From: Ollibium composti
GTDB taxonomy: Bacteria > Pseudomonadota > Alphaproteobacteria > Rhizobiales > Rhizobiaceae
NCBI RefSeq assembly: GCF_004801285.1
Contig: NZ_SSNY01000002.1
Coordinates: 124,001-188,000 of the forward strand
DNA length: 64,000 bases
Direction of reading: 5' to 3'
Part shown: positions 5,511 through 49,946 of the stretch, one piece after another
Position numbering within the stretch: the first letter of the stretch is position 1
Layout of the letters: each line of letters starts with the position of its first letter
Notes under the pieces: model-generated
What the model was told of the DNA's origin: nothing
Database searches by the model: none
What the model saw: the letters and a program-made list of their open reading frames with translations, nothing else
Program-made: the position numbers and the translations under genes

Positions 5511-7361
5511 GTGACCAAAACCATCCGCCTCACCATGGCGCAGGCGCTGACGCGCTTCCTTGCCCGGCAGATGACCGAGATCGATGGTGAGAAGCTGCCG
5601 ATCTTTGGCGGCGTCTGGGCAATCTTCGGCCATGGCAACGTCGCCGGCATCGGCGAGGCGCTGTACGGCGAGCGCGAGGCTTTGCCCACCTTCCGCGCCC
5701 ATAACGAGCAGGCGATGACGCATGCGGCCATCGCCTATGCCAAGGCGAATTTCCGCCGGCGCTTCATGGCCACCACGACCTCCATCGGGCCTGGCGCGCT
5801 CAATATGGTGACGGCGGCGGCCCTTGCCCATGTCAACCGGCTGCCGGTCCTGCTCCTGCCCGGCGATGTCTTCGCCAACCGCATTCCCGATCCGGTGTTG
5901 CAGCAGGCCGAGGACTTTTCCGACGGCACCGCCACCGTCAACGACTGCTTCCGTCCCGTTTCGCGCTATTTCGACCGCATCACCCGGCCCGAGCAGATCG
6001 TGCCGGCGCTCAACCGCGCCATGCAGGTGCTGACCGATCCGGCTGAATGCGGGCCGGTGACGCTGGCACTATGCCAGGACGTGCAGGCCGAGGCTTGTGA
6101 CTATCCCGAAAGCTTCTTCGCCGAGCGCCTCTGGACGCCGCGCCGGCAGCGTCCGGATCGAGGCGAACTGGCCGCTGCTGCGGCGGCGCTGAGGGCGGCG
6201 AGGAAGCCGCTGATCGTCGCCGGCGGCGGCGTGCTTTACTCCGGCGCTTCCGATGCGCTGGCCGATTTCGTCGAAGCGACCGGCATTCCCGTCTGCGAGA
6301 CGCAAGGCGGAAAATCCTCGCTGCCGGACGATCATCGCCTCAACATGGCTGCCGTCGGCGTCACCGGCACATCCGCCGCCAACCGTCTGGCCGAAGAGGC
6401 GGACGTGGTGCTGGCGGTGGGCACACGGTTGCAGGATTTCACCACCGGCTCATGGGCGCTGTTCAAGGGCGAGGGCAAGACGCTTGTCGGCCTCAACGTC
6501 CAGCCTTTCGATGCCGGTAAGCACCGCGCGCTGCCACTGGTCGCGGATGCGAAGGAAGGCTTGGCTGAACTGTTTACTGCTCTGAACGGCTGGAAGGCGC
6601 CTGCTGGCTGGACCGACAACGCCGTGAAAGGCAAGGCAGAATGGCAGGCCGAGGCCGGCAAGGTCACGGCATCGACCAACGTCGCCCTGCCGTCGGATGC
6701 GCAGGTGATCGGCGCCGTGCAGCGGGCGATGGGGTCCGGCGTCATCGCCCTGCACGCGGCCGGTGGCCTGCCGGGCGAGATGCACAAGCTCTGGCAGGCT
6801 GGCGCACCGGGCTCCTACCATGCCGAATACGGCTTCTCGACCATGGGCTACGAAATTGCCGGCGCGCTCGGCGTCAAGATGGCGCGGCCGGACAAGGAAG
6901 TCGTCGTCATGGTCGGCGACGGCTCCTACCTTATGCTCAATTCCGAGATCGCCACGTCCGTGATGCTCGGCCTGAAGCTCACCGTCGTGCTGCTCGACAA
7001 TCGCGGCTTCGGCTGCATCAACCGGCTACAGATGGCGACCGGTGGCGCCAACTTCAACAACCTGTTGAAGGATGCGCGCCACGAGACATTGCCCGATATC
7101 GACTTCCCCGCCCATGCCTCCAGCCTCGGCGCGATCGCGCAGAAAGTGTCGTCCATCTCGGAATTGGAGACGGCGCTGGCGGCGGCGAAGACCAATGAAC
7201 GCACCACCGTCCTCGTCATCGACACCGATCCGCTGGTATCGACCGAGGCCGGCGGCCATTGGTGGGATGTTGCCGTGCCGGAAGTGTCTTCGCGCCCGCA
7301 AGTCGTTGCCGCACGCAAAGAGTACGATGAAAAGCGCAAGGCGCAGCATGTCGGCGATTGA
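5511..7361 (+). CDS. iolD: 3D-trihydroxycyclohexane-1,2-dione hydrolase
   Basis: A 616-residue thiamine-diphosphate enzyme that opens the inositol ring by hydrolysing the cyclic dione to 5-deoxy-glucuronate. It has the acetolactate-synthase-like three-domain layout: pyrimidine-binding domain with the E in HNEQAMTHAAIAYAK, a central nucleotide-like domain, and a ThDP-binding domain with the GDG motif at 469-471 and LLDNRG near 494-499. It starts with GTG behind a strong GGGAGGAA site; no ATG nearby fits. It follows iolC after the palindromic repeat and precedes iolE by 36 bp. Length and motifs match the family. Confidence 0.95.
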   Translation: MTKTIRLTMAQALTRFLARQMTEIDGEKLPIFGGVWAIFGHGNVAGIGEALYGEREALPTFRAHNEQAMTHAAIAYAKANFRRRFMATTTSIGPGALNMVTAAALAHVNRLPVLLLPGDVFANRIPDPVLQQAEDFSDGTATVNDCFRPVSRYFDRITRPEQIVPALNRAMQVLTDPAECGPVTLALCQDVQAEACDYPESFFAERLWTPRRQRPDRGELAAAAAALRAARKPLIVAGGGVLYSGASDALADFVEATGIPVCETQGGKSSLPDDHRLNMAAVGVTGTSAANRLAEEADVVLAVGTRLQDFTTGSWALFKGEGKTLVGLNVQPFDAGKHRALPLVADAKEGLAELFTALNGWKAPAGWTDNAVKGKAEWQAEAGKVTASTNVALPSDAQVIGAVQRAMGSGVIALHAAGGLPGEMHKLWQAGAPGSYHAEYGFSTMGYEIAGALGVKMARPDKEVVVMVGDGSYLMLNSEIATSVMLGLKLTVVLLDNRGFGCINRLQMATGGANFNNLLKDARHETLPDIDFPAHASSLGAIAQKVSSISELETALAAAKTNERTTVLVIDTDPLVSTEAGGHWWDVAVPEVSSRPQVVAARKEYDEKRKAQHVGD

Positions 7362-40815: not shown

Positions 40816-41466
40816 ATGGTTTCTCGCGTGCGCACGGTCGCATTTCAGGGCATCGAGGCGGTGCCGGTGGATGTGCAGGTGATGGTCGCGCCCGGCAAGG
40901 TCGGCATCTCCATCGTCGGCCTGCCGGACAAGGCGGTGGCCGAGAGCCGCGAGCGGGTGCAGGCCGCGCTGCATGCCTCCGGCCTGTCGATGCCGGCCAG
41001 GAAGGTGACCGTCAATCTCGCCCCGGCGGACCTGCCGAAGGAAGGCAGCCATTACGATCTGCCCATCGCGCTCGGCCTGATGGCGGCGCTCGGCGCCATA
41101 CCGGGCGATGCGCTGGCCGGCTATGTCGTGCTCGGCGAACTGTCGCTCGACGGCACCATCGCGGCTGTGGCCGGCGCGCTGCCGGCGGCCATCGGCGCCA
41201 ATGCCGAGGGCAAGGGCCTGATCTGCCCGCACGCCTGTGGCCCGGAGGCGGCGTGGGCGGGTAGCGACATCGATATCCTGGCGCCGCGCAGCCTGATTGC
41301 CATGGCCAACCATTTTCGCGGCTCGCAGGTGCTGTCGCGGCCGGTGGCGGGGGTGCGCGCCGCGCCCGGCGACCTGCCGGACCTCGCCGACATCAAGGGA
41401 CAGGAAAGCGCCCGCCGTGCGCTGGAAGTGGCCGCGGCGGGCGGCCACAACATGCTCACATTGTGA
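40816..41466 (+). pseudogene. comM: comM N-terminal part, interrupted
   Basis: Codes for the first 214 residues of a YifB/ComM-type AAA+ protein (Mg-chelatase-like helicase promoting branch migration in transformation). The N-terminal domain GIEAVPVDVQVMVAPGKVGISIVGLPDKAVAESRERV is intact. The gene is broken after GGHNML, just before the Walker A motif; the final Thr-Leu and the stop come from the inserted element. The rest is at 49942-50838. Joining at the shared CATGCT gives an uninterrupted 510-codon frame. The fragment lacks ATPase motifs and should be inactive. Confidence 0.93.
41451..41456. repeat. attL core of the comM element
   Basis: CATGCT at the left junction, repeated at 49941-49946. 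To the left lies comM sequence, to the right foreign DNA. A short identity like this fits a large serine recombinase; the exact crossover dinucleotide cannot be seen. Confidence 0.75.
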
Positions 41467-41522
41467 ACAAAAGACCCGCCGGGTAAAGTTGCCATTGCTG
41501 TTGGTTTAGCGGCCTACTCGAT

Positions 41523-42479
41523 CTAGTCCAAAACCCGCGTCTCTTGGATGGCGGAGACGAGCGCGCCTATGTCTGACGGGTCTGGCAATCTGTGGATCAT
41601 CTTGTGGCAGTTTGAGCACAAGACCGCGAAGTCGGTCGCAACGTCATAGGTCACCGTCGTACCCTGGTTCAACGAAGCTATTGGGGTGAGGTGGTGGGCT
41701 TCAATGAAGCCGGCGCCAATCGTGCCGTAGTGCCGCTGGAAGTCGAAGCCGCAAGCCTGACACACCGTCCCGTGAAATGCCTTAGCCAGTTTGGATGCCT
41801 TTGGGTTCCGCTCTATCCGGCGGTGCATTCGGTAGCGCCTCTCTTCGTCGACCGTAGCCCCTTGCTCAGGCTGGTCGTTATTCGTCAACCCAAAGTCGAG
41901 ACCGCCTCGAAAGATCAGCGCGCGGTAGCAGTCAATCATCGTTGCCAGGTCGAAGGCTAGACGACCTTCGTCGGGCAATTGGTTGACGTTGTAGCTGAGC
42001 CCCAAAGCGTGGCCAGCCGCGTAGTCACCTGCCAGCGTCTGACCTTTGCCGAGGTTGATGTTCAACTCTGGTAGTTGCGACAAGTAGTCAGACGTTCGCT
42101 TACGCATAAGTGCCGCACGATCTAACAAGACCTGTTGGGTAAGTCGCCCGAACTCCTGTCGTACCGTGGTCGTTCCTTGGTTTAGGCTGAGGTGGACCTG
42201 CTCCCCCGCAATGTCGAACAAATACACGGGATAGAAGCCGCGTGTGGCGCTCGTCGTGATGCTCGGTTCAAAGATGGCGACCCAAGGAACCCTTGCCCAA
42301 TTCCCTTGCCCAGGGCTGCCCTCAACCAACAAGCCGGTGCGGCGGGCGCCCAGCGTGGTTTCTATAGCAACCGCCAAATCTACTCGAATTGCGGCCGCTA
42401 CGGGGTGGTTTGTCAGTGCCTCTCGTGAGGCGGCTGAGTAAGACGCTGCTATGAATTGAAGTGTGTCGCGGAATGCCAT
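41523..42479 (-). CDS. McrB N-domain/HNH endonuclease, type IV restriction-like
   Basis: A 318-residue two-domain protein. Residues about 1-190 resemble the McrB-N/DUF3578 domain (WVAIFEPSITTSATRGFYPVYLFD, VHLSLNQGTT), which reads modified cytosine in McrBC-type enzymes. The C-terminal 90 residues are an HNH nuclease: CQACGF, EAHHLTPI and DFAVLCSNCHKMIH supply the zinc and catalytic residues. The architecture predicts cleavage of modified, for example phage, DNA without a separate GTPase. It reads outward to the left junction, transcribed from the minus strand, and ends 67 bp from attL. Modification specificity is not visible. Confidence 0.88.
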   Translation of the reverse strand: MAFRDTLQFIAASYSAASREALTNHPVAAAIRVDLAVAIETTLGARRTGLLVEGSPGQGNWARVPWVAIFEPSITTSATRGFYPVYLFDIAGEQVHLSLNQGTTTVRQEFGRLTQQVLLDRAALMRKRTSDYLSQLPELNINLGKGQTLAGDYAAGHALGLSYNVNQLPDEGRLAFDLATMIDCYRALIFRGGLDFGLTNNDQPEQGATVDEERRYRMHRRIERNPKASKLAKAFHGTVCQACGFDFQRHYGTIGAGFIEAHHLTPIASLNQGTTVTYDVATDFAVLCSNCHKMIHRLPDPSDIGALVSAIQETRVLD

Positions 42480-42800
42480 GAAGTACCCCTCCCTTGGGGA
42501 TTTGTACGTCTGAGCATGGGTGCGAAGTCAAGCGTCGGCAGATCAGCCTATCCAAATTGGACACCGTAAGGAGTATTCAGGGGCAGCCCAGGACTGTCCT
42601 TGCCGTCCTGCTCGGGAAGCCGCCGCAGCTTCCGCGGCGACGGCCTTATACATGGGAGCGTGAATAGCCGCCCTATCTCAACGCCCTCAAACCCCTGCAT
42701 TTCCGGGCTTATTCACCATTCACCAACTAGAGTTGATTGAATTGTGAATGAATGGATGGCCAGCGAAGAAGGCAGAGCCTCCTTCTGAGCGCCACGCGCC
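42480..42800. other. 321-bp interval with nested inverted repeats
   Basis: Non-coding gap between the RepA-like gene and the HNH gene, both on the minus strand. It holds a nested palindrome at 42717-42750: outer arms CATTCAC/GTGAATG around inner CAACT-AG-AGTTG. A GAAGC...GCTTC hairpin lies near 42617. Candidates are a terminator, an operator for the nuclease promoter or an origin; no gene is evident. Confidence 0.5.
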
Positions 42801-43862
42801 CTAGAACTCCTCATTGATGCCCGGCAAAACTTCTTCGGCTGGTTCCGCTGTGTCGGCGAACGGGTCCTTCTCCGCCCGCCGCATTTCACGTGCTTTGATG
42901 AACAGGCGTTCCACCTCATCCTTTCGCGGCGCACCAAGAGCCGCCGCTCGGGTAAGGGCACGTGACACCGTGGGTTGGGACATTCCCAGCGCCTTGGCGA
43001 GTTCCGCTTGATTGACGTATCGCAGCGTTTCCAGTGCTGCGACGACACGCCCGTTCACGCTGTCGGCATCCTCCTCGACCGACCATCCGGCTTCACTCAG
43101 CGACCACGTTCGCGGGCTGAGACTGTCGTCCCCGCGCCCTCGGAACTTGCCGAACGTCGTGACGAAGGCCGCGCTGCCGGGCTTGGAAACGGCGGGCCGC
43201 TGCAATCCCAGCTTGACCTCGAACGTCGCTTCAAGGGCCGTTGACCCCCGGGCATCCGTCCCGGTCTTGTTGGCATAGTGGACAACGATTGCCGTCTTGT
43301 CGGCCTGCTTCATCTTCATCAGGAACGACATAATGGATCGAAAGGCCGTCGCCGCGTTCTCGTCGTCGAGCCCATCGGCGCATGTCGTCAGATTGTCGAT
43401 GATGATGGCCTCTGCTTCCTGCTCTTCCATCAAAGCCAAGATACGGTGCTGGTCGTCCGTATTCGTGATGTCGAAGAAAGTTGACCGTGGGTCCTGATAC
43501 TGGCGCGGCATGAACAGGATGTTGCGATCCAGTTCACGGCGATCCACGCCGTCCACTCCACGGGTGTCAAGAAGGAACCGGACGCGCTCTTGAAGGTCCT
43601 GAACGTTCATTTCTCCATCGATGATCAGGACCTTGCGGGGCTTGCTGGCTTTCCATTCCCAGACACGCCCGCCGCCCGCTATTGCCATCGCAAGGGACAG
43701 CGTGAGCCACGTCTTACCGACACCGGTCGCGGCCCAGATCAAGGCGCTCTCCCCGGTCCGCAGCCACGGGTCTATGACGAACTCGCGCGGCGGGAATTGG
43801 CGGGCCAGCAGTTGCGCCGCCGTCAGTCCCTTCAGCGCCGGTTCTGTGTGGCGCGCCGTCAT
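42801..43862 (-). CDS. RepA-like RecA-fold ATPase/helicase
   Basis: A 353-residue AAA_25/RepA-type ATPase. Walker A AATGVGKT is at 44-51; IDGEM near 86, the Walker B strand AEAIIIDNLTTC near 150, and the VVHYANKTG sensor near 200 match hexameric RepA helicases of IncQ plasmids and satellites. The C-terminal 90 residues contain a winged-helix-like segment (VNQAELAKALGMSQPTVSRALTRAA), so DNA binding is likely. It overlaps the zinc-finger gene by 4 bp (ATGA). It suggests autonomous replication of the excised element. Confidence 0.88.
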   Translation of the reverse strand: MTARHTEPALKGLTAAQLLARQFPPREFVIDPWLRTGESALIWAATGVGKTWLTLSLAMAIAGGGRVWEWKASKPRKVLIIDGEMNVQDLQERVRFLLDTRGVDGVDRRELDRNILFMPRQYQDPRSTFFDITNTDDQHRILALMEEQEAEAIIIDNLTTCADGLDDENAATAFRSIMSFLMKMKQADKTAIVVHYANKTGTDARGSTALEATFEVKLGLQRPAVSKPGSAAFVTTFGKFRGRGDDSLSPRTWSLSEAGWSVEEDADSVNGRVVAALETLRYVNQAELAKALGMSQPTVSRALTRAAALGAPRKDEVERLFIKAREMRRAEKDPFADTAEPAEEVLPGINEEF

Positions 43863-44542
43863 GCTGCGCCCTCGGCATTCTGATCGTCCCCGAAGAAAGC
43901 CGCGCGTTCGCGCTTAACCTCCCGCTGCCGGGCTTCCCTTGCCGCCGCCTCGCGCACGGCTATCTCCCCGCCGTAGCCGACGAAGCCAGTGCCGTGAACG
44001 ATGGCCCAAAGTGCCCTGATGGTGCCCGGACGGACATCACGGTAGACGCTACGCTCCATTTTGCCATCATGCCATTTGTAGGCGGCCTCTCTCGGATTGA
44101 GGCGCAACAACATGCGCACGGTCTGGAAACGAAATCCGTCGTCGTGTCGCCAGAAACGCGGCTGATCCTGGTACCAGTAGCCCATAGCGATAAGCAGGAC
44201 CCCGATGGTATCGGCGTCTTGCTCCTCGGCAAGGGACAAGACCGCTTGGTAGGCTTCCCGGTCGTAGACCGACTGCGCACGGCCCTGATAGGCTTGGTCC
44301 ATGAACCGTCGCGCCTCCCGCACGGTGCGGTCCCATGCCCCTTGGATAACGGTTTGAGCTTTGCCAGGATGATTGCGCTCGAGGAACGCGCGAACTGCTT
44401 TGATGTAGGGTTTGAGATCGGCCTTGGTCACGCCGGTCTGGTGAGGATGCCCGTGACGGGCCATAGTGCGTTTATGTCGCTCGCAATAGGAGCTGTAGCC
44501 CTTGGTCTGCGCATGGCAGCCATCGGCCTTGCAGGTTCTCAT
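43859..44542 (-). CDS. zinc-finger protein, possible replication factor
   Basis: A 227-residue protein of no family I recognise. The N-terminus CKADGCHAQTKGYSSYCERHK is a Cys/His cluster (C4, C9, C20, H23) typical of small zinc fingers on phage and plasmid proteins. The remainder is helical and basic, with a conserved-looking FWRHDDGFRFQTVRMLLRLNP segment and a charged C-terminus (AREARQREVKRERAAFFGDD). It is translationally coupled to the RepA-like ATPase downstream, so a primase-like or initiator role is possible but only inferred. Confidence 0.7.
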   Translation of the reverse strand: MRTCKADGCHAQTKGYSSYCERHKRTMARHGHPHQTGVTKADLKPYIKAVRAFLERNHPGKAQTVIQGAWDRTVREARRFMDQAYQGRAQSVYDREAYQAVLSLAEEQDADTIGVLLIAMGYWYQDQPRFWRHDDGFRFQTVRMLLRLNPREAAYKWHDGKMERSVYRDVRPGTIRALWAIVHGTGFVGYGGEIAVREAAAREARQREVKRERAAFFGDDQNAEGAA

Positions 44543-45273
44543 GTGTGAGTTCGTTCTCGTCGATTTGGGAAAGGTCTATCGCGGACGCTTGGGCGCGCCC
44601 GTTCATGCGCTATACGCATGGCCGCATCCGTACCTAGACCCACAGGCACGGGGGCGAAGACTTATTTGAGCAGTTCGGTGATCTAAGCTGTCGTGGTGTT
44701 GAAGGTAACGCCGATGTCGCTGGTTCTCCGCCATGCACCGTCCAGTCGCCGCGTCAGCAACCAGCATCGGTTTCAATGCAGATGGAACACTACGAGAGCA
44801 AGGGTTGCCTCTCGATCTTCCAGTGTTCGCTGCACAGTTCAGCTTCCCGGTTAACCGACCGGGCTGCCTTGCCACCGCTGACGGCTCTCCGAGCCGCCCC
44901 TGCTTCGCGTCCTGCTATTCCCCTTCTGGCGGGGCAGGCTTTGGTTCCGCTCTACAGGAACGGCCAGCACCGTCCCCTGCGCCAGGGTGTTGTCCCCGGT
45001 CCCATCCGACTGGGCGTCGTTTGGTGGGACAGATATGAGCTATCCGGGCGGCCCCCGCAAGCCATGGAAGGCGAAGAATAATTCCGACAAGATGGGGAAC
45101 TAGATCATAGTTCCAGTGCAGAGGGATTATACATCCCTTGGGAAGATAATCGGCTCAAAGGCTTGCGATCCCGTTGTGGGAATTTGTGGCAGAGCTTGTG
45201 ACAATTCCGGTGACAAACTAAGTTCAAAACATGCCAATTTGTCGCACCCTTGGCGCCCTTTGCGGAGGCGGCG
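44543..45273. other. 731-bp non-coding interval with iteron-like repeats
   Basis: Between the zinc-finger gene and the small resolvase gene. Open frames here have no family match or good ribosome site. Features seen: a GGAACTA-GATCA-TAGTTCC palindrome at 45097-45115, and three GTGRCA copies at 45186, 45198 and 45210 with exact 12-bp spacing. Next to a RepA-type helicase operon, this is the most likely place for a replication origin. Confidence 0.5.
45186..45215. repeat. three iteron-like GTGRCA repeats
   Basis: GTGGCA, GTGACA and GTGACA begin at 45186, 45198 and 45210, a regular 12-bp period close to one helical turn. The pattern suggests cooperative binding of an initiator or recombinase. 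Confidence 0.5.
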
Positions 45274-45921
45274 CTACATACCCCATGATGCCAACGCCTT
45301 CTCAGCACCGGCCCGCTCTTCCCTGATCCTGAGAACGGTCTGCCTGGTCAACCCCGTCTCCTTGGCGATGGCCGATGCCCCGGCATCCATGTCCAGCATG
45401 GCGGTTACCTTCTCGAAGACCTCACGGTCATAGCTAGGTTTCCTGCCCCGGTACGCTGGCGCGCCCTTCTTCGGATGCACCTTGGCCAATTCAATCCCAG
45501 CCTTCTGAGCTTCCTTGGTGGCAACCGCCTGTGCCTCTGCCGTCGCCGCCATGAAGGCTATCAAAGCGTCCCGCACGGCCTGTTGTATCGGGTCCGTGGT
45601 CGCGCCATCGAACACCATGCCGTTGATGACAGTCTTGATCACCACGCCGTCGCGCATGAAATGGCGGATACTGTCCGATACATCCCGGTAGTCGCGGCCC
45701 AGCCGGTCGACCCAGCGCACCACCAGAGTGTCGCCGGGGCGGAGGATGTCGAATAGGCGCTTTCCTTCCGACCGTTCTGCCAGCTTGGTCGAGACGCCCG
45801 ACACGCCATGGTCAGCCACCACCTGATCAATCTTGAAGCCAGCGGCCTCGGCCTGCTTCCTCTGGTGTTCAAGTGTCTGATCGGCAGTCGAGACGCGGGC
45901 GTAAAGGACAGTCTTGGACAT
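45274..45921 (-). CDS. small serine recombinase (resolvase/invertase family)
   Basis: A 215-residue Hin/TnpR-type recombinase. The N-terminus VLYARVSTADQTLEHQR contains the catalytic serine; WVDRLGRDYRDV carries the Arg pair. The C-terminal ASAIAKETGLTRQTVLRIREE is the HTH_7 DNA-binding domain. The ATG at 45921 follows GGAG by 6 bp; an earlier in-frame ATG adds 11 residues without a better site. A palindromic binding site lies 43 bp upstream. It could resolve multimers of the excised element or invert DNA, separate from the integrase. Confidence 0.93.
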   Translation of the reverse strand: MSKTVLYARVSTADQTLEHQRKQAEAAGFKIDQVVADHGVSGVSTKLAERSEGKRLFDILRPGDTLVVRWVDRLGRDYRDVSDSIRHFMRDGVVIKTVINGMVFDGATTDPIQQAVRDALIAFMAATAEAQAVATKEAQKAGIELAKVHPKKGAPAYRGRKPSYDREVFEKVTAMLDMDAGASAIAKETGLTRQTVLRIREERAGAEKALASWGM

Positions 45922-45963
45922 GGGGTCTCCGATGTACGAAAGGGTTGTGTCCATTGTCTATCC

Positions 45964-45995
45964 TGTCCGTTGACCATCGTCAACCCTAACGGACA
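45964..45995. promoter_or_regulatory. nested palindrome upstream of the resolvase (candidate res site/operator)
   Basis: Arms TGTCCGTT and AACGGACA enclose a second inverted repeat GTTGAC-CATC-GTCAAC. It lies 43 bp before the resolvase start, where resolvases usually bind and self-regulate. Confidence 0.6.
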
Positions 45996-46800
45996 TCCTC
46001 TCGGCCACCTTTCGGAATGACCGCTAGGCTATACCCTTGCGGACGTGCCTCGCCTCCCATCCATTACTAAGCGAACTCGTAACCCCGATCCTCCACTTAT
46101 CCCTGCGTGACCCCGAGGGTCGCCGGAGAGGGTGGCGCCTCATAGGGGGGCTGGGGCGAATTAAGGAGAACACGGCGGGGGTGCGGGGGAGGTATAGCGC
46201 GTTCTATAATCAGATGGGGCGCTCAGAAATTATTGCTCAAAATTTCGGCCCTGGTTGCCCTGACAGACGCAACCGTTATCTCCCGCCAACGCGGGGAGTG
46301 ACAAAGGATGGTTGCTCGTAGCTGCGCAAACGATGGAAATTACTGCGCCGAGTACGCGCCCGGCATAACAAGCAGCAAACATGCATCGAGGAAACCGGTC
46401 GTGTGCTGATTGTTGTGGGAAACGCTAAGAATAAGTATTTCCTCTATTGAAACGCGGACTTCTGCGCGCCATTTTGTAGTGACGCTACTTTACGTGGTGG
46501 CGCTATCCGATCACGAAAGGCTTGTTTGCTTGGGGGGACCGGAGAGATAGTTGAAACTGTCAAGCCCGAAGTGAGCCAGCAGTATCAGAGTGACGAGGTC
46601 CATTATGATCTCCATGAGATACCGGCAGCGACGGACTGCACACGAGCTTCGTGCCGTGCCGATAGTATACAACGTTATGTCGTTATTTAGTGCCGAAAGA
46701 GCTTATGGCTCGTTTTTAACGGTGTGGGGCAGGAGACTATGGTCAAGGCACTTGGCTATCCTGCCCCCTCTCGACATCCATCCCCCTCTTCACATCTAGA
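45996..46800. ncRNA. long non-coding leader of the reverse transcriptase, candidate template RNA
   Basis: About 800 bp with no convincing gene between the resolvase promoter and the RT. From about 46200 the base composition drops to that of the RT gene, so the two probably arrived together. It contains several hairpins: CACGA-GCT-TCGTG (about 46642-46654), AACG/CGTT (about 46671-46684), GAGC-TTATG-GCTC followed by GTTTTT (about 46700-46718), and the strong stem-loop at 46726-46767. Defence RTs such as DRT2 and DRT9 use an RNA encoded next to the RT. That this is one is inference; the RNA's ends are unknown. Confidence 0.4.
46726..46767 (+). other. stem-loop directly upstream of the RT gene
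   Basis: GGGGCAGGA pairs perfectly with TCCTGCCCC; an inner CAAG-GCA-CTTG stem tops it. It ends 33 bp before the RT ATG. With the pyrimidine-rich stretch that follows, it leaves no ribosome-binding site visible for the RT. Confidence 0.75.
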
Positions 46801-48240
46801 ATGACGATTGAGTGGAAACCCGCGCTTAAGGGCTATTGTCACTTTGATGGGCATATGTCCGTTAAAGATGCCGTACTTCTAGCCACTGATCCTGTGCGGG
46901 TTGCCCGACATCCGTTCTATCCTTTCATCAGATACCATCAGCGCTGGACAAAATACGCGGAGAAAGGGCAGTCCGGTAAAGAAAAAATCCGTCCTATTCG
47001 ATATGCTGCGCGCGCGGACGCATATATCTTTAGCTACTATCGATATTTATTATCTAGGGATTACGAGGCGAGATTGCAAAATGAGAACCTTACTGAAAAT
47101 GTACTCGCGTATAGACGCATATTAGACAGTTCAGGTAGCGGTAAATGTAATATCCATTTCGCGATGGATGGTATTAAAAAGATAAGAAACTTAGGAAGAT
47201 GCTGCGCAATTGCTATGGACATTAGTAATTTCTTTGAGAGTATCGATCACGGAGTACTCAAAGAGGCTTGGAAAGATGTTATTGGTGGATCGCGCCTGCC
47301 GCCTGACCATTATGCTGTATACAAAGCAATAACTGCCTATTCTGTTGTTGATAAAGAGAAACTTTACGAGCGCCTAGGATACTACGGCGTCAAAGGCCAC
47401 AACAAAACCGGAGACCCTATAAAGGGGTATTTGAAACCTCCAAGAGATATCCCGACGAAATTGACGACTGGCGCCGAGTTTCGCCGCGCTGTCGCTGGCG
47501 GAAATGGCTATCGCTCACTTATAGATCAAAATCGAAAGCCTTTTGGCGTGCCCCAAGGGGCTCCGATCTCGGACCTTCTAGCTAATCTGTACTTGCTCAA
47601 GTTCGACATGGAAGTTCGTGATCGCGTGGCAGCGTTGGGGGGTGCTTATTACCGCTACTCTGATGATATTCTTATTGTTACTCCTCAGGAGCCAAATGAG
47701 GCATCTGATTTAGAGGCCTGGGTTCGGAATACTATCAGGAAATATGGCGACAAGATAAAAATAAAACCGGAAAAATCAGCGCTATTCCATTTTCAACCCA
47801 GTGGAGATAACCAACTCTGGACCAGAGTTAGCGGAGATCAGGGAAAAAATGGTTTAGAATACTTGGGGTTTCGATACGATGGTCGATATATGTACCTCAG
47901 GGACAGCACTATCAGCAACTTTCTTCGCAAAGTGACTAGAGGTGCCAAGCGCGCCGCCCATTTCGCTGCGAGGCGATATCCGAATAAATCAGCGGTCCAG
48001 ATATTTGACCTCTTCGATGTTGATGGTTTCATACAGAGATACGGGCGAGTAGAGGACTTTGAGAGCAAAGCTGGCGATGTCCACAACTGGACATTTTGGA
48101 CTTATGTCACACATGCGGCAGATGTGTGCGGACCATTGGGACGGCCAATATTCAAGCAACTAAGGCACCAGCGCGGCGCGATCTCGGGCCGAATAATGGG
48201 TGCAATCGTGAATGCGGTGAAGTGGAGAGATCGGGCTTAA
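46801..48240 (+). CDS. stand-alone defence-type reverse transcriptase
   Basis: A 479-residue RT without intron-maturase, HNH or nitrilase domains. Conserved blocks in order: KPALKGYCHFDGHMSVKDAV and VARHPFYPFIRY (16-45), RPIRYAARADAYIFSYY (64-80), the first catalytic Asp D140 in AIAMDISNFFESIDH, GVPQGAPISDLLANLY (249-264), the YSDD box with D288/D289, and GLEYLGFRYDG (351-361). About 110 helical C-terminal residues follow. The HxFYPFI/RPIxYAA pattern is that of unknown-group (Abi/DRT) RTs; DRT2-like is my best guess. The AT-rich composition differs from its neighbours. No Shine-Dalgarno precedes the ATG. Confidence 0.88.
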   Translation: MTIEWKPALKGYCHFDGHMSVKDAVLLATDPVRVARHPFYPFIRYHQRWTKYAEKGQSGKEKIRPIRYAARADAYIFSYYRYLLSRDYEARLQNENLTENVLAYRRILDSSGSGKCNIHFAMDGIKKIRNLGRCCAIAMDISNFFESIDHGVLKEAWKDVIGGSRLPPDHYAVYKAITAYSVVDKEKLYERLGYYGVKGHNKTGDPIKGYLKPPRDIPTKLTTGAEFRRAVAGGNGYRSLIDQNRKPFGVPQGAPISDLLANLYLLKFDMEVRDRVAALGGAYYRYSDDILIVTPQEPNEASDLEAWVRNTIRKYGDKIKIKPEKSALFHFQPSGDNQLWTRVSGDQGKNGLEYLGFRYDGRYMYLRDSTISNFLRKVTRGAKRAAHFAARRYPNKSAVQIFDLFDVDGFIQRYGRVEDFESKAGDVHNWTFWTYVTHAADVCGPLGRPIFKQLRHQRGAISGRIMGAIVNAVKWRDRA

Positions 48241-48372
48241 AATACCGATCGGGCAGTCACAGCCACTCATGGCTCACCTCGGCAGGCCATCGGCTGAGGA
48301 TAGCTTGGCGTGAGACCCAGGGTGATCCGCAGCACCTTCCTCATCGTCCGTGCCACTGTGATCTTGTTGCCG

Positions 48373-49902
48373 TCACTCGGCTGTATCTTCCGCCGGCCAA
48401 GCAAACATAACCTCTATCGTCTCATCTGGGACATGCCGCCAGTGGAACGTTAGGTTCCCGCTTCGCCAGTCCACAACCGTCGTGTTGAATAGGCTCCGAA
48501 GCTGCACGTTTGCCGTCCCCACGTCATCCGCTTCAAGGGCCTCGACAAGCCGCCCCACGGTGTTTTGAGTACGGTGGGTCAGGGCGGCGGCTATTTCCCT
48601 CTCGACTTGGTCAAGTTGGTCATTGTGATTGTCCTTGTCGGCTTCCAGCAGGGCGAGCCGGTCAAGCAACGCCTGGCTATGGCCTGCCCGCCCCACGGCC
48701 TCTACGATTTTGTCAATCGCGTCCTCTATGCCGCCGATCGCTGCTTGCAGTCGGGACCGTTCGACCTCCAACTCTGCATCGGCTGACGGTAACTCCACGT
48801 CGAACCTGTACGCATTCCCCTGTATGGCGTCCTGCACGTCTTCAACCGGCACGGATTTGTAGGGCCTGCACAGCCCGCCTTTTGCCCTGACACAAACGAA
48901 CGATGGCCTTGACCTCTTCCCCTTGTTCATCCGCGTCATGGTCGCCCCGCACAGCGGGCAGCTGGCGAGGCCGGCAAGAATGTTCTGTAGCGCGTCCGCT
49001 GTCGAGGATGAGCGCCCGGAACCAAGGGCTTGCACCCGTTCCCACACAGCCATGTCGACCACGGCGGGGAAATAGCCTTCAACCGGCGTCTCGGGTATGC
49101 GCCTGCCGTTGACCTTTCGGTGCGGTGTATACCTCCCCACGGTCGAGGGGTCTGCCAGCATCTTCTTGATGTACGAACGGTGCCACATTACTCCTCGCCC
49201 AAAGACCGGAACTCCTTCCCTGTTCAGGGTGTCAGCAATCCAGTGCTGCCCTTTACCCTCCAAGGTCCAGGCGAACACCTGACGCACTATAGCCTCGCGC
49301 TCGCCTATCGGGTCGTATCCGCTCTTATCTTCCCGGAGCCGTAACCAGCCGGGACATAGGCGCGTCATAGGGCGTCCTTCCGACATGGCCTTGGTGCGCT
49401 TGGCCGCCCATGCTTCTTTGAGACGTCGTGCCTTAGTTTCACTTTCTTCGTTCGCGCGCATGAACATCATGACGGCGACCATTAGGTCTATCGGGTTCCT
49501 ACGAAGGCTTTCGTGGGTGTATTCCCTGCCGTCGTTCAGCGTGACGACTGTAATGCCCGCCTTAGCGATGTCTTTGAGCGTGTCGAGAGCGTCTAGCGCG
49601 TTCTCGCGGGAAACACGGTCTAGGTTCTCAACTAGAAGGTATGATCCCTTGGCAATGTCGCCGGATCGAACAAAAGACAGAAATTCCCCGAGCATCCCCT
49701 CGGCTTTGTTTCGACCTTGAAACGCAGACATACCCAGATCGTGGAATGAGAACTTGTCATCCAACATCAGACCATGCGTAGCCGCGTATCTGGCGGCGGC
49801 CTCAGTCTGTCGCCGGAAGCTGTCCCCCTTTGCCTGCTCGGGGGTCGAGAAACGCACGTAAGAGTAGGCTCGTGGCCGGTCTGTGTTGTGTGTGTCGGTC
49901 AT
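48373..49902 (-). CDS. large serine recombinase (integrase of the comM element)
   Basis: A 509-residue integrase. Catalytic domain: YVRFSTPEQAKGDSF with nucleophile Ser19 and ENLDRVSRENALDAL. Then the recombinase domain (about 165-300, including IADTLNREGVPVFGRGVMWHRSYIKKML), a zinc ribbon (CPLCGATMTRMNKG...VCVRAKGGLC, about 325-355) and a coiled coil (VERSRLQAAIGGIEDAIDKIVEAVG). The start lies 39 bp from the right CATGCT copy, the usual place for the gene beside attP. It converges with the RT gene across a 132-bp gap. It should catalyse insertion into comM. Confidence 0.95.
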   Translation of the reverse strand: MTDTHNTDRPRAYSYVRFSTPEQAKGDSFRRQTEAAARYAATHGLMLDDKFSFHDLGMSAFQGRNKAEGMLGEFLSFVRSGDIAKGSYLLVENLDRVSRENALDALDTLKDIAKAGITVVTLNDGREYTHESLRRNPIDLMVAVMMFMRANEESETKARRLKEAWAAKRTKAMSEGRPMTRLCPGWLRLREDKSGYDPIGEREAIVRQVFAWTLEGKGQHWIADTLNREGVPVFGRGVMWHRSYIKKMLADPSTVGRYTPHRKVNGRRIPETPVEGYFPAVVDMAVWERVQALGSGRSSSTADALQNILAGLASCPLCGATMTRMNKGKRSRPSFVCVRAKGGLCRPYKSVPVEDVQDAIQGNAYRFDVELPSADAELEVERSRLQAAIGGIEDAIDKIVEAVGRAGHSQALLDRLALLEADKDNHNDQLDQVEREIAAALTHRTQNTVGRLVEALEADDVGTANVQLRSLFNTTVVDWRSGNLTFHWRHVPDETIEVMFAWPAEDTAE

Positions 49903-49940
49903 TGAGGAGCTCTATCAGGGTTAAGGTCTTCCGTCCATAC

Positions 49941-49946
49941 CATGCT
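49941..49946. repeat. attR core of the comM element
   Basis: CATGCT at the right junction; the next base resumes comM in frame (ATG-CTG-ATG-GTC, then GPPGSGKS). Identical to the left copy. Confidence 0.75.

What the first reader, a model, noticed from the sequence alone, without database searches (positions are those of the whole stretch)
45996..48240. Stand-alone reverse transcriptase with a long non-coding leader on an integrative element
The 479-residue RT has intact catalytic residues (D140, D288/D289 in YSDD) and none of the accessory domains of group II introns, retrons with effectors or DGRs. About 0.8 kb upstream has no convincing gene but several hairpins, and it shares the RT's AT-richer composition. 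DRT2 and DRT9 are known systems in which an RT uses an adjacent RNA to make defensive DNA. This locus has the same layout in an alphaproteobacterial element.
Basis: partly seen in the sequence, partly recalled or inferred. Interest (0 to 1): 0.9.

Follow-up and report, generated by a model that had tools for sequence, protein, structure and literature searches.

The report
Hidden-gene-making reverse transcriptase (DRT2 type)
A bacterial mobile element carries a reverse transcriptase and a small RNA that, by close analogy with the known DRT2 anti-virus system, should be copied round and round into DNA to create a new gene for a growth-stopping protein; this group of bacteria appears to use a different copying signal from the known system.

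Summary
The 479-aa RT is a divergent DRT2 (UG2) enzyme: PADLOC Drt2 436 bits against 75 for the next class; predicted fold matches KpnDRT2 at Z 36.4. About 270 nt of the leader (about 46503-46773) is a conserved, pseudoknotted RNA. It holds a 129-nt template (46550-46678). Reverse-complemented and joined head to tail, it gives a -35/-10 pair at 17 bp across the junction, a Shine-Dalgarno and ATG, and a stop-free 43-codon repeat, as in the published neo gene. Template edges in relatives were set without using frame. Of 58 units less than 80% alike, 51 are multiples of three, and all 51 are open in the same frame. Departures from KpnDRT2: ACA/ACA jump motifs are replaced by GTT/GTY (first two bases shared in 54 of 57), and the RT falls below NCBIfam's Drt2 cut-off. 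Six scattered relatives lack the multiple of three; their ORF crosses the junction and stops near the next start codon: finite Neo, decay or assembly error. The RT rides an 8.5-kb serine-integrase element in comM. No activity is shown. New variant of a known kind.

The parts
46801..48240 (+). DRT2-type reverse transcriptase, 479 aa, YSDD; catalytic D140, D288, D289
46503..46773 (+). conserved ncRNA (5' boundary inferred from conservation; 3' end at the conserved CCTCTCG)
   Evidence: no RNA data
46550..46678 (+). template region, 129 nt, one repeat unit of the predicted concatemeric cDNA
46550..46552 (+). jump motif 1 (GTT), first bases of the template; same place as ACA-1 of KpnDRT2
   Evidence: first two bases shared with motif 2 in 54 of 57 loci
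46679..46681 (+). jump motif 2 (GTC), directly after the template; same place as ACA-2 of KpnDRT2
46558..46563 (-). -35 element TTGACA of the promoter formed across the repeat junction
46664..46669 (-). -10 element TATACT of the junction promoter (17-bp spacing only after concatenation)
46610..46613 (-). Shine-Dalgarno GGAG of neo
46601..46603 (-). predicted neo start codon ATG; the frame runs through every repeat (unit ITLYTIGTARSSCAVRRCRYLMEIIMDLVTLILLAHFGLDSFN)
46689..46694 (+). pseudoknot strand 1 (AGTGCC)
46699..46711 (+). short hairpin GAGCTTATGGCTC (buttress-like)
   Evidence: alignment; also called terminator-like by the pattern scan
46726..46767 (+). long tower-like hairpin GGGGCAGGA...TCCTGCCCC
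46747..46752 (+). pseudoknot strand 2 (GGCACT) in the tower loop
48373..49902 (-). large serine recombinase (Resolvase + Recombinase + Zn ribbon), likely integrase of the element
45274..45954 (-). small serine resolvase/invertase, divergent from the ncRNA
41451..41456 (.). left copy of the 6-bp att core CATGCT in comM
49941..49946 (.). right copy of the att core CATGCT in comM
   Evidence: empty site in relatives

Best explanation
This is a DRT2-type anti-phage system, variant 'GTY-jump'. The ncRNA upstream of the RT is bound by the RT through its 3' pseudoknot/tower region (inferred from KpnDRT2). On phage infection the RT copies the 129-nt template. On reaching GTT at the template's 5' end, the cDNA end re-pairs with the GTC just 3' of the template, and copying starts again. 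The resulting tandem cDNA, once double-stranded, joins a TTGACA at the end of one repeat to a TATACT at the start of the next (17 bp). That drives an mRNA with a Shine-Dalgarno, an ATG and an endless hydrophobic ORF of 43-residue repeats (Neo), which stops growth and aborts infection. Shown here by sequence: RT class and fold, conserved RNA, pseudoknot covariation, unit length in threes, open frame, junction promoter, paired jump motifs. Inferred from the KpnDRT2 work: transcription, priming, jumping, phage trigger, toxicity.
For: RT class: PADLOC Drt2 436 bits against 75 for the next class; NCBIfam Drt2 352 bits, E 5e-105; profile against KpnDRT2 chains 417 bits, E 6e-124; model pLDDT 94.5, best PDB match 9c0i Z 36.4, rmsd 2.4 over 413 residues, next 23.2. 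Template: 9 of 9 first loci have unit %3 = 0 and the same frame open. With edges from two nucleotide profiles, 61 of 66. With eight further loci, edges set by eye from the motifs, 67 of 74. Among 58 units less than 80% alike, 51 have %3 = 0, and all 51 are open in frame 0 against 2 and 0 in the other two frames; shuffled interiors are open in 25%. In the window alone, a scan asking only for two shared bases at the edges and a -35/-10 pair across the junction gave 48 candidates; of the five with the top promoter score (11 of 12), only the GTT..GTC 129-nt unit is open. A Shine-Dalgarno plus start codon with an endless or one-unit ORF is present in 61 of 67 units. Neo GRAVY +0.67 (51 units) against -0.16 for shuffled open units; window 0.78. 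Jump motifs share the first two bases in 54 of 57, with CTT/CTC co-change. Pseudoknot complementarity of own partners 5.65 against 4.40 for swapped, 0 of 5000 permutations.
Against: No RNA, cDNA, protein or phage data. The curated NCBIfam Drt2 cut-off is not reached (352 < 390). The ACA/ACA motifs of the published jump are absent, and the basal stem SL2 shows no signal (own 3.04 against 2.96, 1203 of 5000). There is no excess of synonymous changes between close units (0.32 against 0.27 +/- 0.04, 128 of 1000, 11 pairs), so constraint lies on frame and hydrophobicity rather than on exact sequence. Leader folding is not unusual (z -0.61). No sigma-70-like promoter was found for the ncRNA itself. 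Six of 67 units lack a Shine-Dalgarno plus start in the right frame: five have none (L005, L051, L063, L085, L095) and L074 has one only in another frame. Seven of 58 representative units (7 of 74 in all) break the multiple-of-three rule: six stop near the next start codon, and one (L077) has unsure edges.
Confidence: 0.87

Rival explanations
1. The RT is DRT2-like and makes concatemeric cDNA, but the DNA or RNA itself is the effector; the open frame is a by-product of avoiding TTA, CTA and TCA in the structured RNA.
For: No excess of synonymous changes. DRT9, a neighbouring class, works with a non-coding product, and the role of DRT10's repeat DNA is unclear (PMC12483538 and PMC12632851, passages seen).
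Against: 51 of 58 lengths are multiples of three across thirteen different lengths, and the same frame is open in all 51. A Shine-Dalgarno and start codon fit the frame in 61 of 67 units. Hydrophobicity far exceeds shuffled open units. None of these is expected of a non-coding product.
Confidence: 0.07
2. A DRT9-like system: RT plus upstream RNA giving poly-dA.
For: Same gene layout; the DRT9 model is among the weaker hits (51 bits) and DRT9 chains are among the Foldseek matches.
Against: DRT2 scores 436 bits and Z 36.4 against 17.2 for DRT9. The leader carries a neo-type template.
Confidence: 0.02
3. A decayed DRT2 locus without function, carried on a mobile element.
For: No expression data; AT-richer than the rest of the window; only one copy in the genome.
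Against: RT open and catalytic residues intact. Template, promoter, Shine-Dalgarno, ATG, frame and pseudoknot all intact in the window.
Confidence: 0.04

Closest known systems
DRT2 of Klebsiella pneumoniae (KpnDRT2, UG2; PDB 9c0i; PMC11100668, PMC12039810)
   Same: RT fold (Z 36.4) and active site; about 270-280-nt ncRNA directly upstream; template in the middle, pseudoknot and tower 3' of it; junction-made TTGACA/TATAAT-like promoter; repeat in threes; endless hydrophobic Neo.
   Different: 34% identity over the structural alignment; RT 479 against 425 aa with insertions, the largest near residues 195-215; YSDD, not YCDD; GTT/GTY in place of ACA-1/ACA-2; no support for the SL2 basal stem; unit 129 nt, not 120 (96-150 among in-frame relatives).
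Second alphaproteobacterial DRT2 subfamily seen here (L007, L008, L009, L010, L035, L036, L038)
   Same: 7 of 7 units are multiples of three and open, with GT-type motifs at both edges set by eye.
   Different: RT about 430 aa, about 30% identical; a separate clade in the tree.
DRT9 (UG28) and DRT10 (UG17)
   Same: Class 2 UG RTs with an upstream template RNA (papers, passages seen).
   Different: DRT9 makes non-coding poly-dA; DRT10 makes short tandem repeats of unclear role; RT scores far lower (51 and 75 bits).

Membership tests
DRT2 / UG2 | RT closer to DRT2 than to any other RT class | tested here: met
   PADLOC Drt2 436 bits, next class 75; fold Z 36.4, next 23.2
DRT2 / UG2 | reaches NCBI's curated Drt2 equivalog cut-off (NF041746, 390 bits) | tested here: not met
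   352 bits, E 4.9e-105: a relative outside the narrow named family
DRT2 / UG2 | conserved pseudoknotted ncRNA directly upstream of the RT | tested here: met
   (tower found in 49 of 56 loci; pairing own over swapped, 0 of 5000)
DRT2 / UG2 | template unit a multiple of three with one endless frame | tested here: met
   window 129 nt, open; 51 of 58 representatives
DRT2 / UG2 | promoter rebuilt across the repeat junction, then Shine-Dalgarno and start codon | tested here: met
   TTGACA-17-TATACT, GGAG, ATG; edges in relatives were seeded on the promoter motifs, so their conservation there is partly circular
DRT2 / UG2 | ACA-1/ACA-2 flanking the template (KpnDRT2-like clade) | tested here: not met
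   GTT/GTC in the window; matching GT- or CT-type pairs in 54 of 57
DRT2 / UG2 | SL2 basal stem at the template | tested here: inconclusive
   no excess complementarity (1203 of 5000 permutations)
DRT2 / UG2 | phage-triggered concatemeric cDNA, Neo toxicity, abortive infection | not testable with these tools
   needs experiments
DRT9 (UG28) | RT best matched by DRT9 models | tested here: not met
   51 bits against 436 for Drt2
Group II intron maturase | reaches the curated model cut-off | tested here: not met
   TIGR04416 63.6 against 300 bits
DGR RT | template repeat / variable repeat pair and a DGR-type RT | not tested
   no search for a TR/VR pair was made; the DGR chain 8ub7 is second by fold at Z 23.2

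The most novel reading that the evidence does not exclude
Neo need not be endless. In several separate lineages of this clade (best cases L106, Aureimonas sp. AU12, and L110, a Caulobacterales MAG) the concatemer encodes a row of complete, stop-terminated, single-unit Neo proteins. Each ORF starts at the SD-ATG of one repeat, crosses the junction, and ends at or near the next start codon (ATGA overlap in L110). The published pipeline used absence of in-frame stops to call Neo, so such systems would have been missed. Alongside this, the jump signal is an evolvable microhomology: ACA in KpnDRT2, GTY or CTY here.
Probability: 0.22. Interest if true: 0.75.

Novelty: new variant of a known kind. 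Interest (0 to 1): 0.6.

Why it matters
The first DRT2 paper (PMC11100668) predicted ncRNAs in divergent DRT2 clades, found Neo harder to annotate there, and raised the possibility of other mechanisms. Here one large, mostly alphaproteobacterial clade, plus a second smaller one, is predicted to make Neo after all, with a different template-jump signal and unit lengths of 96-150 nt. That gives exact, testable junctions for dozens of genomes. It suggests that the hidden-gene strategy reaches beyond the ACA-type systems, and it offers a natural series of jump motifs for working out how an RT re-primes on its own template, the step shared in concept with telomerase.

Tried and rejected
Folding energy of the leader (z -0.61): no help. 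A basal stem like SL2: not seen. Excess of synonymous changes in Neo: not seen. The MAFFT alignment A2 of 27 scaffolds misaligned the pseudoknot strands, so no covariation count was made on it; own-versus-swapped pairing was used instead (49 of 56 loci, the other 7 gave no hairpin under the rules set). One genome-contig scan and one viral-contig scan with the single protein gave nothing; alignment A1 worked, but one search kept only the best 80 of 104 confirmed places, so the clade is larger than the set studied. Rfam has no match here at gathering thresholds apart from a tRNA. Of 101 loci, five near-copies (L047, L049, L081, L088, L101) were dropped; 66 of the remaining 96 gave both edges, and 30 did not. 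Of those 30, six were given edges by eye (L004, L069, L077, L091, L103, L104), and seven belong to the second subfamily. L006 (upstream masked as N), L048 (only 36 nt upstream), L062 and L090 (unclear edges) were left out; the rest are distant DRT2s. Of six further loci (L130-L135) four repeat known ones and two (L131, L132) were added. L077 was left out because its edges are unsure; it counts among the seven exceptions. The tree is the quick kind, its outgroup RTs were not classified, and three loci gave no intact ORF for it (L005, L100, L117).

The six finite-ORF cases: random indels put in open units give such a stop position in 3441 of 17803 (19%), so six of six would be unlikely by chance (0.193 to the sixth, about 5e-5), but the window of -11 to +13 nt was chosen after seeing five cases. 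Five of the six are MAGs, none has a relative in the set sharing the state (6 changes on the tree), and in four of them a single-base length change at many positions would give back an endless frame. Two of the ORFs are not hydrophobic (L103 GRAVY -0.64, L096 -0.12). Decay or assembly error therefore remains likely for most.

Literature searches; nothing in the titles and abstract beginnings listed describes GTY motifs, Alphaproteobacteria or a finite Neo for DRT2. What I saw: PMC11100668 parts 1-4 and 7 of 8 plus passages; PMC12039810 outline, Main Text parts 1-2 of 3, Discussion and Bioinformatics; PMC12596737 abstract and outline only; PMC12483538 and PMC12632851 passages. The journal version of the first paper (DOI given from recall) is not held, and no supplement was read, so I cannot exclude that they cover this clade.

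Full report
Observation. The RT ORF (46801-48240, +, 479 aa) is real and intact. It matches only RVT_1 in Pfam, and D140, D288 and D289 are invariant in an alignment of 65 sequences, the window's included. The genome holds one copy of the RT and one of the leader RNA.

RT class. PADLOC's best Drt2 model gives 436 bits (E 5e-131); the next class, UG17, gives 75, Drt3a 66 and Drt9 51. NCBIfam's Drt2 gives 352 bits, below its cut-off of 390; the group II maturase model gives 64 against a cut-off of 300. The best PDB sequences are KpnDRT2 (220 bits alone; 417 bits with the profile). The AlphaFold2 model (pLDDT 94.5) matches the KpnDRT2 structure 9c0i at TM 0.77/0.86 and at Z 36.4, rmsd 2.4 over 413 residues, 34% identity; the next entry is a DGR RT at Z 23.2. 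In a quick tree of 84 RTs the window's RT pairs with L132 (SH-aLRT 98) inside a large, mostly alphaproteobacterial group, apart from seven outgroup RTs whose class I did not determine. The group also holds MAGs labelled Gammaproteobacteria and single records labelled Acidobacteriota and Actinomycetota.

How common. Counts include the window's own genome: in 397 genomes of the order, 30 match at E <= 1e-3, 20 of them only weakly (probably other RTs); in 385 of the class, 6 at 1e-30; in 398 of the phylum, 3 at 1e-30. Further, 28 plasmid records and 3 phage records. With alignment A1, the genome-contig scan confirmed 104 of 134 stretches and kept the best 80, 79 loci; viral contigs gave 3 of 25.

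The RNA. BLAST of 700 nt upstream in nine loci found convincing similarity only within about the last 270 nt before the RT. Profiles of the 5' and 3' parts found the same RNA in most of the group. In the window it runs from about 46503 to the conserved CCTCTCG ending at 46773. Its 3' part has a long hairpin whose loop pairs with a strand just after the template. Among 49 of 56 loci where the hairpin was found, the pairing strands vary widely (AGTGCC/GGCACT, TTGCGG/CCGCAA, GCATATT/AATATGC, TCTTCA/TGAAGA, AACGCAC/GTGCGTT). On average each RNA fits its own partner better than others' partners (5.65 against 4.40, 0 of 5000 permutations). This corresponds to the pseudoknotted scaffold described for KpnDRT2 (PMC12039810). 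Folding energy alone is unremarkable.

The hidden gene. In KpnDRT2 the template is bounded by two ACA motifs. The reverse complement carries a -10 near its start and a -35 near its end, so a promoter arises only across repeats, and the repeat length is a multiple of three with one endless frame (PMC11100668, PMC12039810). In the window the corresponding pieces are GTT at 46550, TGTCAA at 46558 (reverse complement TTGACA), AGTATA at 46664 (reverse complement TATACT) and GTC at 46679. The unit is 129 nt, the spacing across the junction is 17 bp, and the ORF is open with a Shine-Dalgarno and ATG. I saw the open frame of the window by hand first. The junction for the other eight loci was then fixed by motif and spacing, and all 9 of 9 were multiples of three with the same frame open. 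For the wide set, edges came from nucleotide profiles seeded on 43 loci chosen by edge motifs, without using frame: 61 of 66. With eight loci whose edges I set by eye from the motifs (L004, L069, L077, L091, L103, L104, L131, L132), 67 of 74. Taking one unit per group of 80% identity, 51 of 58; all 51 are open in frame 0, against 2 and 0 in the other cDNA-strand frames and 20, 9 and 3 on the RNA strand; shuffled interiors are open in 25%. In-frame lengths run from 96 to 150 nt, thirteen different values. A scan of the window's own leader that asks only for two shared bases at the edges and a promoter pair across the junction gave 48 candidates, 8 of them open; of the five with the top promoter score, the GTT..GTC unit is the only open one. 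A Shine-Dalgarno and start codon fit the frame in 61 of 67 units, five of these being the finite cases below. Neo units are hydrophobic (GRAVY +0.67 against -0.16 for shuffled open units, 51 units; window +0.78), as reported for Kpn Neo (PMC12039810). The exact residues show no excess of synonymous changes in 11 close pairs. Because the edges were seeded on TGTCAA and an A..ATA motif, the strong promoter scores in relatives (51 of 57 exact TTGACA; 55 of 57 with at least 9 of 12 matches) are partly circular; lengths, frames, Shine-Dalgarno and hydrophobicity are not.

Jump motif. The first two bases at the template start and directly after the template agree in 54 of 57 loci: GTT/GTC 30, GTT/GTT 13, GTT/GTA 6, CTT/CTC 3, GTA/GTT 2; exceptions GTT/ATC 2 and CTT/GTC 1. 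The co-change in the CTT/CTC loci is what a re-pairing model predicts. No basal stem like SL2 was supported. A second alphaproteobacterial DRT2 subfamily has GT-type motifs at both edges and 7 of 7 open units in threes, edges set by eye. In two more distant loci the best-scoring candidates had other repeated motifs (L039, L123, suggestive only).

Exceptions. Six loci (L076, L093, L096, L103, L106, L110) have units not divisible by three. In each, the ORF from the SD-ATG crosses the junction and stops between 11 nt past the next start and 13 nt before it. Their RTs are open: L076, L093, L096, L106 and L110, and L103 was taken into the tree as an intact ORF. They are scattered on the tree (6 changes, at least 5 forced by starred branches). 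This may be a finite Neo, recent decay, or assembly error; L106 (not a MAG) and L110 are the best cases for a finite Neo. L077 has unsure edges.

Element. comM is interrupted at CATGCT (41451 and 49941), giving an insert of 8.49 kb with a large serine recombinase at its right end. The joined flanks match without interruption in 17 of the 18 other same-genus genomes searched. The eighteenth, G1410, has the two halves about 7.7 kb apart, with a similar large serine recombinase and other cargo between them (L139, read from its ORFs). So this is probably a comM-targeting element with exchangeable cargo. Besides the RT, the window's copy carries a protein with an McrB N-terminal domain and a weak HNH match (below Pfam's cut-off), a possible type IV restriction gene.

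Verdict. It is a new variant (GTY-jump, longer RT, below the curated cut-off) of a known kind. Function is inferred from KpnDRT2 and untested here.

Noticed in passing
L076, L093, L096, L103, L106, L110: DRT2 relatives whose repeat unit is not a multiple of three; the neo ORF crosses the junction and stops at or near the next start codon (ATGA overlap in L110). Possible finite Neo, decay or assembly error.
   Followed up: partly
L007, L008, L009, L010, L035, L036, L038: A second DRT2 subfamily (RT about 430 aa) with GT-type jump motifs and open units in 7 of 7; L036 has a unit of only 66 nt.
   Followed up: partly
41451-49946: 8.5-kb serine-integrase element inserted in comM at CATGCT; a same-genus genome has a different insert at the same site (L139, cargo includes an unrelated protein at 5879-7123).
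   Followed up: partly
41523-42479: Protein with an McrB N-terminal domain and a weak HNH match on the same element: a possible type IV restriction gene.
   Followed up: no
43859-44542: 227-aa protein next to the AAA_25 ATPase, without a Pfam, NCBIfam, PADLOC or PHROGs match at E 0.01.
   Followed up: no
L005 / L037: A DRT2 RT about 50% identical to the window's, broken into two reading frames although its template unit (123 nt) is still in three and open.
   Followed up: no
L123 (viral contig): A distant DRT2 on a viral contig: best candidate unit 150 nt, open, with a 12-of-12 junction promoter and a longer repeated motif at the edges.
   Followed up: no
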